Origin: a virus
Virus record (IMG/VR): IMGVR_UViG_3300036831_000092
Coordinates: 1 to 58,047 of that record
DNA length: 58,047 nucleotides
Direction: 5' to 3' (one strand)
Part shown: positions 52,056 through 58,047 of the stretch, piece by piece
Position numbering within the stretch: the first letter of the stretch is position 1
How the letters are laid out: each line of letters starts with the position of its first letter
The notes under the pieces: model-generated
What the model saw: the letters and a program-made list of their open reading frames with translations, nothing else
Databases searched by the model: none
What the model was told of the DNA's origin: nothing
Made by a program: the position numbers and the translations under genes

Positions 52056-53300
<1,245 letters not shown>

Positions 53301-55118: not shown

Positions 55119-55194
55119 TGGCGGGTGGTTTGGGAATCGAACCCAACGCGGCTGCTTTTGGAGAGCGGCCAGCCTATCCTTGGCGTTCCCACCC
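55119..55194 (-). tRNA. tRNA-Trp-like (anticodon CCA), degenerate
   Basis: 76-nt cloverleaf: acceptor GGGTGGG / ACCACCC (6 of 7 pairs), D arm GCC-AAGGATA-GGC, anticodon arm CCGCT-CTCCAAA-AGCAG (4 of 5 pairs), T arm TTGGG-TTCGATT-CCCAA, discriminator G and CCA. Position 8 is A rather than U, so function is uncertain. Carried by the second element. Confidence 0.6.
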
Positions 55195-55264
55195 TTTATT
55201 ACAGGATAGCAAGCCTATTAGAATGGTCAATGCCAGTTATCCACAGCCTTATGGAAGAATGATT

Positions 55265-55822
55265 ATGAGAATAAGTAATGATGCTAAAGAGCTAGCCAAG
55301 CTGAAATACATTCGAGGCGCGCAAGAGATTTCAAGCAAGCACTACGCGAATATTGAGCGATTTGAACGGACGATGCCGCGAGGTGGCATGATGAAAGGCG
55401 CGATAGACAAAGAGCATTTGCAGATGATCCAAGAACTAGCTGACTTATATTTGGAAGCCCACCTTGAAATGTTTGTAGCTGAAGGGATATTGCCCGATAC
55501 AAACGATATGAGGGAGTTCCGGGCCGAGATTGAAAATATAGTCAGCCGCAGATCAGGCGGTGAATTTTGGAGTCCGAGGCCATCAACTAACTCAACTCTG
55601 TCTTTCCTTCCACAAAGCATCTATATCAACTTCGCCAACAGGGTAAAGCAAATGGAGCTTGAAGCCAGGGTACACAAGGCCGCGCCAGAGCAACCGGCAA
55701 GCACCAGCTATAACACAACGATTCATGGCCCCAATTACGGTAACATTCAGCAGGGGGGTCAAGGTAATACTCAATCTGTAACCCGCGCCGGGTCAGAAGA
55801 GGAAGGCGATGAGGAAAATTGA
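55265..55822 (+). CDS. IQQGG-array protein 1
   Basis: A 185-residue protein whose start (MRISNDAKELAKLK) was chosen by homology with the third and fourth copies (MKLSEDA...). Helical N-terminal domain (about 1-140), linker with Pro/Ser/Ala, and C-terminal motif TTIHGPNYGNIQQGGQGNTQ. Its stop overlaps the next ATG (ATGAGG). The motif resembles bacterial amyloid signalling sequences (I-Q-x-G core). Function inferred as signalling or defence. Confidence 0.6.
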   Translation: MRISNDAKELAKLKYIRGAQEISSKHYANIERFERTMPRGGMMKGAIDKEHLQMIQELADLYLEAHLEMFVAEGILPDTNDMREFRAEIENIVSRRSGGEFWSPRPSTNSTLSFLPQSIYINFANRVKQMELEARVHKAAPEQPASTSYNTTIHGPNYGNIQQGGQGNTQSVTRAGSEEEGDEEN

Positions 55823-56369
55823 TTTAAGAATTAGCGCAGCCAGGAAGAAGCTGGCAGACAGCGAGTATAAGAAACAGGCTATCGAGATTGATAGGCGTTA
55901 TTCGCACATCAAGCTTAATGATATTACCTTTCACATGATGCGCGAAAAGGAGAGCCGTCAATATTTTCAAATCTACGCAGAGTGGATGAAGATAAAAGTG
56001 CGTGCAAGGCTACAAACCTACTTAGAAGCTTTCAAGGAAGAAGGGGTAATACCGGACGATGCTGACCTAAGCAATATGAGCTGGGCTTTTCAGGGCGTGA
56101 TAGAAGACTTTACCGCTTCCCTCCCTCAAGAATTAAGCTCAGCATTGCAGCAGCTTGGGAGAATGCAGGTAATCGAGGACGCCCGGAGAGATATTGACAT
56201 CTTTGCCCAAAAGATGAGCATTGAACAAATGAGGGCAGAGGCCCAGAAGCCCCAGCCGCCGCATGGGAATATCTACAATATGTACATAGGAGAAAATCGC
56301 GGGCCTATCCAGCAGGGCGGCAGCAGCAACACCCAAAGCACCAGCGGGAGCAATGATGAAACTAAGTGA
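55809..56369 (+). CDS. IQQGG-array protein 2
   Basis: A 186-residue paralogue: RISAARKKLADSEYKKQAIE at the N-terminus, a helical core with EEGVIPDDADLSNMSWAF, and the C-terminal motif MYIGENRGPIQQGGSSNTQ. The ATG lies within the end of gene 1 and its stop overlaps the start of gene 3. More diverged in the core than genes 3 and 4. Confidence 0.6.
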   Translation: MRKIDLRISAARKKLADSEYKKQAIEIDRRYSHIKLNDITFHMMREKESRQYFQIYAEWMKIKVRARLQTYLEAFKEEGVIPDDADLSNMSWAFQGVIEDFTASLPQELSSALQQLGRMQVIEDARRDIDIFAQKMSIEQMRAEAQKPQPPHGNIYNMYIGENRGPIQQGGSSNTQSTSGSNDETK

Positions 56370-56939
56370 AGATGCGAAGAAATTAGCTGAAGCCCTAATG
56401 AGCAAAGACCATTATCAGGTAGCTCTTTGGGCAGAAGAAGACATCAGAAGAGTGAGAGCCGCGAGAACACAATCAAACCCGCAATTCAATCAATTAATCG
56501 CCCATCACGAGGAGAGTATTAGAAGGACTTTCAAATACATAATTAACGCTTACGTTGAAGGTTACAAGATGGACAACTCGTTGATGGACGATGAAGATAG
56601 ACATGAAATTATTGAGTTCATTAGAAGCATGATTAATCGGCGGCTCGAACATATTACCAACTCAGTGGTGGGCCGTGACTTTATCATCCATATACCGGCG
56701 AAAAAATCCCTAACCTAGACGCTCAATTGGCTGGTCACTTCGACAGGTTGGTAGGAGAGGCAGCGGTAGAATTAAACTTGGTTCAGAACCAAATGGTAAT
56801 GGATCAGAAACGACGAGAGCGTGAAGAAAGATTAAGGGCTAACCAAATAAACATCTACGGCCACAACTACGGCAATATCCAACAGGGCGGCAGCGGTAAT
56901 ACTCAAAGTACCAGCGAGGGCGGCGATGAAGTTAAGTGA
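56356..56939 (+). pseudogene. IQQGG-array protein 3, frameshifted at an A6 run
   Basis: MKLSEDAKKLAEALMSKDHY... reads to IHIPAKKSLT and a TAG at 56716. After a -1 shift at GAAAAAAT (about 56699) the frame continues IPNLDAQLAGHFDRLVGEAA... to INIYGHNYGNIQQGGSGNTQ and stop 56939, matching copy 4 (LIPNMESYMTARLERILGEA). The combined length (194 residues) equals its relatives. Either a frameshift mutation, an assembly error or programmed -1 frameshifting. Confidence 0.6.
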
Positions 56940-57504
56940 AGATGCGAGTAAGTACGCGGAATCAATTTACAGAAAAGTTTTTACGCAATGCGCTATTGAT
57001 GGCGAAACAGAGCGTCGGAAAATCCGGGCGACTGCGACCCCAAGTAATCCTAATATCCCACAGATGTCAGATCACTTCGTTAGCCTCACAAAGCGGCTGG
57101 TTGATGCGCGGCTTGATTCTTACGTCCAAGCATACAAGCAGGACGGCCTGCTCATTGACGAAGAAGACAAGGACGAAATTATCGAGGCGCTTAGGAAGAT
57201 CATCAAAAACAATATAATGTGGGTAACTACTGACTCCACTCTCCGAGAATTCAGACTGCCCAATACCGGCCAGCTTATCCCCAACATGGAGTCCTACATG
57301 ACCGCCCGCCTTGAAAGAATACTTGGGGAAGCTGCGGTTGATTTAGATTTAGCCAGGAATCAAATGGTAATGGAGCGGAAGAATAGGAAAACTGAACTGC
57401 CGCCCACCCATTACAACATTCATGTCTATGGAGATAATCACGGCAATATTCAACAAGGCGGAGAGAATAACAGTCAGACCATTAACCCCAAGGAGGACGA
57501 GTAA
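56926..57504 (+). CDS. IQQGG-array protein 4
   Basis: A 192-residue paralogue (MKLSEDASKYAESIYRK...), with a conserved acidic stretch LLIDEEDKDEIIEALRKIIK and the C-terminal IHVYGDNHGNIQQGGENNSQ. It overlaps gene 3 by 14 nt in the same way as the other junctions. It ends 6 nt before the convergent CHAT-like fragment. Confidence 0.65.
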   Translation: MKLSEDASKYAESIYRKVFTQCAIDGETERRKIRATATPSNPNIPQMSDHFVSLTKRLVDARLDSYVQAYKQDGLLIDEEDKDEIIEALRKIIKNNIMWVTTDSTLREFRLPNTGQLIPNMESYMTARLERILGEAAVDLDLARNQMVMERKNRKTELPPTHYNIHVYGDNHGNIQQGGENNSQTINPKEDE

Positions 57505-57510
57505 CTTCCG

Positions 57511-57951
57511 TTAGGTCAAGCTACCGATGAACTGCCAAAACTGATTCCATTCAGTATTGCGTCTTGAACACTGCAAGATCACACCGCCAGTCTTAAAGAA
57601 ATTCAACAGGCTACCCATCTGTATAATGTCGTTATCTAGCTTCTTAGCAAGCAATAGGTACGGCACAAGGAGCTTGATTACTTCGGCGTGCGCCAGCGAG
57701 GTTTTTAACGGTGAGGCGTAAATCTTATTAAGCTTCGGAATCTCATCAAACAGCGTCCGGGTAGCCGGAAACTGTCCGGCCTCACACGCTATAAAAATCA
57801 TCTTCTGCGGATTGAAGGGTAAGACCCAATGCGCGAAGGCTTCCCACGTCAGAAGCATATCAGGCGCTATGCTGATGACCTCGCGGTTGCTGTGCGCTAT
57901 AACGACAACAAGCTTGATGGAACTGTATTTGCCTTTGTAGTCACCAAACCA
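57511..57951 (-). pseudogene. CHAT/caspase-like protease fragment, 5' end missing
   Basis: The open frame runs from TGG 57951 to the stop at 57511 (about 146 codons). No start codon exists upstream of ATG 57858. KLVVVIAHSN (His) and MIFIACEAGQFP (Cys) are spaced as in CHAT-type proteases (His...AC-x-x-G). A TAG at the edge of the hairpin cluster closes the 5' side. Probably a remnant cut by that insertion, or the N-terminus lies in a different reading. Enzyme class is inferred from these motifs only. Confidence 0.5.
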
Positions 57952-58047
57952 CTATGCACTGAAAGTGCATAGGTTGCCGTGGGACTGAAAGTCCCACATC
58001 ATTCGAGGATGAACCGGTCGCTTTCACGGTTCATCCTCGAATGATGT
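57952..58047. repeat. Cluster of three perfect hairpins
   Basis: CTATGCACT-gaa-AGTGCATAG (57952-57972), GTGGGACT-gaa-AGTCCCAC (57979-57997), then a 21-bp perfect inverted repeat with a 10-nt loop (57996-58047). The first two share the ACTGAAAGT centre. They abut the truncated CHAT-like frame, suggesting a palindromic insertion or the end of a mobile unit. Confidence 0.65.

What the first reader, a model, noticed from the sequence alone, without database searches (positions are those of the whole stretch)
55265..57504. Tandem array of four overlapping paralogues ending in a shared IQQGG amyloid-like motif
Seen: four adjacent genes of about 185-194 residues, each with a helical N-terminal domain and a C-terminal YGxNxGNIQQGGxxNTQ-type motif, joined by identical stop/start overlaps. 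Known: bacterial amyloid signalling sequences and RHIM-like motifs use an I/V-Q-x-G core and often sit at protein ends in immune systems. Inference: the array is an undescribed signalling or defence module of the tRNA-Asp element, with the paralogues co-assembling through the motif.
Basis: partly seen in the sequence, partly recalled or inferred. Interest (0 to 1): 0.88.

Follow-up and report, generated by a model that had tools for sequence, protein, structure and literature searches.

The report
Prophage helix-bundle array with RHIM-like tails
A prophage in an acidobacterium carries four tandem sister genes, each a soluble four-helix domain ending in the same short 'IQQGG' motif that resembles the amyloid-forming RHIM motif of cell-death pathways; related arrays elsewhere sit beside known anti-phage genes and include a probable killer domain, so this is most likely a multi-part phage-defence signalling module.

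Summary
The array is real: four tandem, divergent paralogues (A-D, 55265-57504), each a confidently predicted four-helix bundle (modelled for D and an A homologue) plus a flexible IQQGG tail, joined by 14-nt overlaps. Correction: gene C is frameshifted. No Pfam, NCBIfam, PHROGs or PADLOC family fits A-D. Homologues occur in a few other Blastocatellia genomes (8 of 162 hit). Two other arrays (G001, G137) keep the same main paralogue types in another order; there the A-type gene continues into an AbiTi/PDC-M14B-like helical tail. The domain is also fused to TIR/bSEFIR and to a deaminase; neighbours include IetAS, Tn7-like genes and SIR2. The motif profile finds essentially only these clusters, with no NLR partner. 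The element is the left end of a tRNA-Asp prophage; a complete 42.8-kb sister prophage carries the deaminase fusion. Best explanation: a new adaptor domain in an NLR-independent, RHIM/BASS-like homotypic-motif defence module, with an AbiTi-type executor in relatives. The window copy lacks an executor tail and has one broken gene, so it may be incomplete, partner-dependent, or a decoy. Fibre formation and phage protection are untested.

The parts
52058..52134 (+). tRNA-Asp(GTC), attachment site of the element; the 49 nt at 52088-52136 recur as the distal direct repeat of the sister prophage in G157
   Evidence: ARAGORN, Rfam, DNA search, blastn
52077..53300 (-). tyrosine integrase of the prophage; 66% identical to the G157 prophage integrase; its ORF reads antisense into the tRNA-Asp
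   Evidence: Pfam 9.7e-23, PHROG integrase 4e-59, BLASTP
55207..55230 (+). 24-nt element TAGCAAGCCTATTAGAATGGTCAA, identical upstream of the G137 array; 34-35 nt before the first start codon in both; likely promoter or operator
   Evidence: (one hit each in G000 and G137, none in 11 other genomes)
55265..55822 (+). Gene A (P0001, 185 aa): helix-bundle domain plus motif (55730-55780); 54% identical to G001 P0008 but without its AbiTi-like tail
55809..56369 (+). Gene B (P0002, 186 aa): divergent helix-bundle domain plus motif (56292-56342)
56356..56939 (+). Gene C, frameshifted: N-terminal frame 56356-56718, second frame with motif to 56939 (motif 56862-56912)
56926..57504 (+). Gene D (P0005, 192 aa): AF2 four-helix bundle at residues 5-156, disordered motif tail (57433-57483); 77% identical orthologue in G001
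55809..55822 (+). 14-nt stop/start overlap A-B
56356..56369 (+). 14-nt stop/start overlap B-C
56926..56939 (+). 14-nt stop/start overlap C-D

Best explanation
The array encodes the adaptor/sensor side of a prophage-borne, abortive-infection-type defence module. Shown: each protein is a predicted soluble helix bundle with a flexible C-terminal RHIM-like motif; the motif is shared among co-encoded proteins of the same locus and almost nowhere else in 162 genomes; in two other arrays the A-type member also carries an AbiTi/PDC-M14B-like four-helix tail after the motif, and elsewhere the same motif-tail unit follows wHTH domains. Inferred: infection changes or clusters the bundles, the motifs stack by homotypic templating as in RHIM/BASS signalosomes, and this clusters motif-bearing executors (AbiTi-like tail; in fusions TIR or deaminase) to stop or kill the cell. 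In the window copy no executor tail is present. It must use a motif-bearing partner elsewhere (the contig ends about 540 bp later), be decayed, or work by assembly alone.
For: Four-helix bundle with disordered motif tail, pLDDT mostly >90 for residues 1-155; P0008 is bundle - disordered motif - second four-helix domain. AbiTi match of the P0008 tail at 1.6e-4; P0008 and wHTH protein P0013 share the tail region (E 3e-18); other wHTH-motif-tail proteins match PDC-M14B. bSEFIR 8.5e-32 / TIR_2 5.4e-18 and deaminase 2.5e-14 fusions of the same domain. IetA 4e-147 and IetS E=0 in the same gene row as the G118 motif proteins; SIR2 and Tn7-like genes near the G137 array. Motif hits confined to the clusters of G001, G118 and G137 apart from three weak hits. 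Conserved paralogue types in three arrays. C. catus AbiTi was toxic in E. coli (PMC3985639). Prophage location; protein-level selection.
Against: No executor in the window; gene C frameshifted; no NLR or recognised sensor; AbiTi/M14B matches are weak; defence context is guilt by association in few genomes; window motifs have one residue more (IQQGGxxN) than RHIM spacing (IQxGxxN); no amyloid assay or predictor was run.
Confidence: 0.55

Rival explanations
1. Decoy: the tail-less motif proteins of this prophage cap or poison a host AbiTi/BASS-like signalosome, as herpesvirus RHIM proteins do in animal cells. The array would be counter-defence rather than defence.
For: All window members lack an executor tail; the element is a prophage; a viral RHIM decoy precedent exists (VZV ORF20, title and abstract of PMC7375649).
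Against: In G001 and G137 the same paralogue types are co-encoded with the executor tail; the same domain is fused to TIR and deaminase effectors, which looks like defence.
Confidence: 0.15
2. Decayed remnant: formerly a three-part system like G137; the A gene lost its tail during rearrangement and C was frameshifted, so the copy is no longer functional.
For: A lacks the tail present in both A-type homologues; C is frameshifted; order is permuted.
Against: Frames A, B and D are intact; D has been under strong purifying selection since the split from G001; all overlaps and the upstream element are intact; the frameshift could be a metagenome assembly error.
Confidence: 0.2
3. Non-immune scaffold or filament, or phage morphogenesis/regulatory protein, with the motif as a self-assembly tag unrelated to cell death.
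For: No direct functional evidence; a soluble helix bundle with a sticky tail would suit a scaffold.
Against: Fusions to TIR/bSEFIR and deaminase, AbiTi-like tails and defence neighbours; no phage family match; no significant viral fold match.
Confidence: 0.1

Closest known systems
BASS motifs with Bell-domain effectors and NLRs (Dyrka 2020, as summarised in PMC7889193)
   Same: Short RHIM-like motif at the C-terminus of a small helical domain, shared between proteins of adjacent overlapping genes
   Different: No NLR partner found; the domain has no hydrophobic transmembrane helix; three or four paralogues instead of an effector-receptor pair; the executor-like tail lies after the motif
RHIM (RIPK1/RIPK3/ZBP1) and BASS3
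   Same: [IVA]-Q-x-G-x-x-N core with exact spacing in the G137 and G118 relatives (e.g. GGIQQGAGNTQ, GGAQVGPNNTQ)
   Different: Window and G001 versions are IQQGGxxN, one residue longer; homology cannot be shown for so short a motif
AbiT (AbiTi) and PADLOC candidate PDC-M14B
   Same: P0008-type tails and the wHTH-motif-tail relatives match these profiles
   Different: Window proteins lack the tail; the N-terminal four-helix domain is not matched by those profiles; three or four paralogues per locus
[quoted passage not shown] PMC8195603)
   Same: Small helical non-catalytic domain coupled to varied effectors (TIR, deaminase, helical tail)
   Different: No Pfam match to any domain of that kind; larger (about 150 aa); carries the RHIM-like tail
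bSEFIR
   Same: G161 homologue has a TIR/SEFIR domain matching bSEFIR at 8.5e-32
   Different: There the helix-bundle domain precedes the SEFIR; the window proteins have no SEFIR

Membership tests
BASS/Bell-NLR amyloid signalosome | Same motif at the N-terminus of an adjacent NLR | tested here: not met
   Motif profile over 162 genomes finds the array and wHTH-tail proteins only, plus three weak hits (E 0.002-0.045) that lie in unrelated-looking proteins; the window is truncated at 58047, so absence there is not proof
BASS/Bell-NLR amyloid signalosome | Bell domain: helical bundle with hydrophobic transmembrane helix | tested here: not met
   Helical bundle yes; highest 19-residue hydropathy in window proteins only 0.47-0.99
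BASS/Bell-NLR amyloid signalosome | Motif shared between proteins of adjacent or overlapping genes | tested here: met
RHIM / BASS3 | [IV]-Q-[IVL]-G-x-x-N spacing | tested here: inconclusive
   Met closely in G137 and G118 relatives; window has one extra residue
RHIM / BASS3 | Amyloid fibre formation and cross-seeding | not testable with these tools
   Needs peptide assay
AbiT / PDC-M14B | AbiTi-like C-terminal helical domain | tested here: not met
   Absent from all window members; weakly present in P0008 (1.6e-4) and in wHTH-motif-tail relatives
EAD | Match to a described effector-associated domain | tested here: not met
   No Pfam family above cut-off in the helix-bundle domain of any member
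EAD | Coupled to diverse effector domains | tested here: met
   TIR/bSEFIR, deaminase, AbiTi-like tail
Prophage cargo | Related integrase at same tRNA, att repeats and virion genes in a sister element | tested here: met
   66% integrase; 49-nt repeats 42.8 kb apart in G157; terminase and major head protein; the window itself shows only the left end

The most novel reading that the evidence does not exclude
A previously undescribed adaptor domain family drives NLR-independent, RHIM-like homotypic signalling through a fixed set of three or four co-encoded paralogues, and prophages carry executor-less versions that either tap into or block the host's motif-matched killers, a bacterial counterpart of viral RHIM decoys.
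Probability: 0.2. Interest if true: 0.85.

Novelty: new variant of a known kind. Interest (0 to 1): 0.62.

Why it matters
The Prion review PMC7889193 lists as open whether signalling amyloids exist in bacteria outside NLR pathways, and what triggers them. This family gives small, soluble, NLR-free candidates whose motif matches within a locus, whose paralogue set is conserved, and whose executor tail is present in some arrays and absent in others: a natural set for testing templated assembly, motif specificity and phage-encoded interference. It also adds an uncatalogued adaptor domain with which TIR/bSEFIR, deaminase and AbiTi-like effectors can be mined.

Tried and rejected
Pfam, NCBIfam, PHROGs and PADLOC scans of A-D gave nothing above cut-off; the sub-threshold hits point to unrelated families and were treated as chance. 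tblastn in phage and plasmid records: none. Foldseek against PDB and viral models: nothing significant, so HeLo/MLKL homology is not supported. Programmed frameshifting in gene C was considered and judged unlikely, because the two frames match homologues on either side of a simple one-base register change. The executor tail was sought in the window and not found. The 22-nt upstream pattern as a dispersed repeat: rejected, it is unique in each genome.

Full report
OBSERVATION. The window holds four tandem same-strand ORFs (A-D) at 55265-57504. A, B and D are intact (185, 186, 192 aa). C is broken: the N-terminal frame (56356-56718) and a second frame (to 56939) both match the G137 homologue, 49% and 38% identity, so a one-base frameshift near 56685-56700 separates them. 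Whether it is real or an assembly error cannot be told. All four share G-x-N-x-G-[NP]-IQQGG-x-x-N-[ST]-Q near the end. Junctions are 14-nt overlaps in one register; the G001 array shows overlaps of the same length (ATGAAGTTAAGTGA, ATGAGAATAAGTAG). Shuffled proteins rarely contain the core (6 of 8000), the chromosomal part of the window has none, and D against its G001 orthologue shows dN 0.13 with saturated dS.

ELEMENT. The integrase (52077-53300, minus) reads into tRNA-Asp (52058-52134). In genome G157 the same tRNA is followed by a 66%-identical integrase, and 49 nt of the tRNA end recur 42.8 kb away. Between them lie a terminase large subunit (2e-26) and a major head protein (2.5e-29). The window therefore most likely shows the left end of a prophage of this family. 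The rest of the record to its left looks like host chromosome; its phosphopentomutase is 91% identical to that of G130, a genome of the same class as Chloracidobacterium sp. UBA6041, i.e. Blastocatellia. The G157 prophage carries, between integrase and structural genes, the same helix-bundle domain fused to a cytidine-deaminase-like domain (2.5e-14).

PROTEINS. AlphaFold with 15 aligned sequences gives D a four-helix bundle (5-35, 44-73, 79-102, 121-156; pLDDT mostly >90) and a disordered motif tail. P0008, the A-type protein of G001, is the same bundle, a disordered motif, then a second four-helix domain at 170-253. Neither matches a solved fold significantly. Window members have no transmembrane-like stretch. 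A, B and C were not modelled separately.

RELATIVES. One genome contigs locus (L006, Chloracidobacterium sp. UBA6041, G001) and a class-wide search (8 of 162 genomes at E<=0.01, including G001 and one marginal hit, G123, that I did not count) plus a phylum sample (adding G390) give all relatives. Arrays: G001 (P0006, P0007, P0008) and G137 (P0011, P0010, P0009). The tree gives an A clade (96/95) and a C/D clade (99/98), each represented in all three arrays; the third members are too divergent to place. Order differs: A-B-C-D in the window, X-D-A in G001, B'-C'-A' in G137. In G001 and G137 the A-type gene is last and carries the extra tail; in the window it is first and tail-less. Recombination through the shared motif DNA is a plausible cause (inference). 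A 24-nt element upstream of the first gene is identical in window and G137, 34-35 nt before the start codon, and unique in each genome: probably the promoter or operator.

EXECUTOR AND CONTEXT. The P0008 tail matches PADLOC AbiTi (1.6e-4) and aligns with the tail of P0013, a wHTH-type protein in G118 (3e-18). wHTH-motif-tail proteins in G118 and G137 match PDC-M14B (about 1e-5). In G118 the row of motif proteins is followed by IetA and IetS. In G137 the array lies beside tnsA of a Tn7-like transposon, with a SIR2 protein nearby; whether it is inside that transposon was not resolved. In G161 the bundle is fused to TIR/bSEFIR plus wHTH. In G346, found only in the phylum sample, another N-terminal domain precedes motif and a similar tail. 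A C. catus AbiTi was toxic in E. coli (PMC3985639).

MOTIF. Aligned across 13 proteins, one G, Q, G and Q column each are invariant. G137 and G118 versions have RHIM spacing (IQQGAGN, AQVGPNN); window and G001 have one more residue. The motif profile finds, in 162 genomes, the clusters of G001 (3), G118 (2) and G137 (4), and three weak hits. So it is locus-bound and shared between adaptors and executor-like proteins. No NLR was found to bear it. A PDC-M14B-type protein in G151 (L029) does sit next to an NB-ARC-like gene with a similar glycine-rich stretch, by eye only.

MECHANISM. Shown: architecture, motif sharing, selection, context. Inferred: sensing, templated assembly, killing. Most likely this is the adaptor side of an abortive-infection module carried by a prophage, probably against competing phages. 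In this copy no executor is seen and C is broken, so decay or decoy function remain open.

NOVELTY. Works like BASS/RHIM signalling, but membership in BASS/Bell-NLR fails on two tested features (NLR partner, transmembrane helix). The domain is not in the libraries searched. Rated a new variant of a known kind.

Noticed in passing
window 55119-55194, minus strand: tRNA-like remnant (apparent CCA anticodon loop, good T-arm and acceptor) just upstream of the array; ARAGORN misses it, Rfam tRNA-Sec model 23.8 bits, below threshold.
   Followed up: partly
window 57940-58047: Perfect 21-bp inverted repeat at the contig end (57996-58016/58027-58047) preceded by two short hairpins sharing ACTGAAAGT; possible repeat element that ended the assembly.
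   Followed up: partly
window 57511-57939, minus strand: 5'-truncated ORF converging on the array (VVVIAHSNREV...FIACEAGQFP), no Pfam match; faintly CHAT-like by eye.
   Followed up: partly
window 1-51900: Appears to be host chromosome (phosphopentomutase, VWA-like protein and tRNA-Val seen near its right end) although the record is filed as a virus.
   Followed up: partly
L012:24-887 (P0013, G118): wHTH-type protein with a weak z-alpha match (8e-4, just below cut-off), an array-type motif region and AbiTi-like tail: a layout reminiscent of ZBP1 (Z-alpha plus RHIM).
   Followed up: no
L036:6824-8245 (G157): Helix-bundle domain fused to an APOBEC/cytidine-deaminase-like domain inside an otherwise complete tRNA-Asp prophage.
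   Followed up: partly
L072 (G131:C67:42871-56606): A second tRNA-Asp insertion, about 13.7 kb, bounded by a 45-nt repeat in a near relative of the host, with a remnant of a similar integrase (62%) and very different cargo.
   Followed up: partly
L006 and L033 arrays: Gene order of conserved paralogue types is permuted between arrays, suggesting cassette shuffling through the motif-coding DNA.
   Followed up: partly
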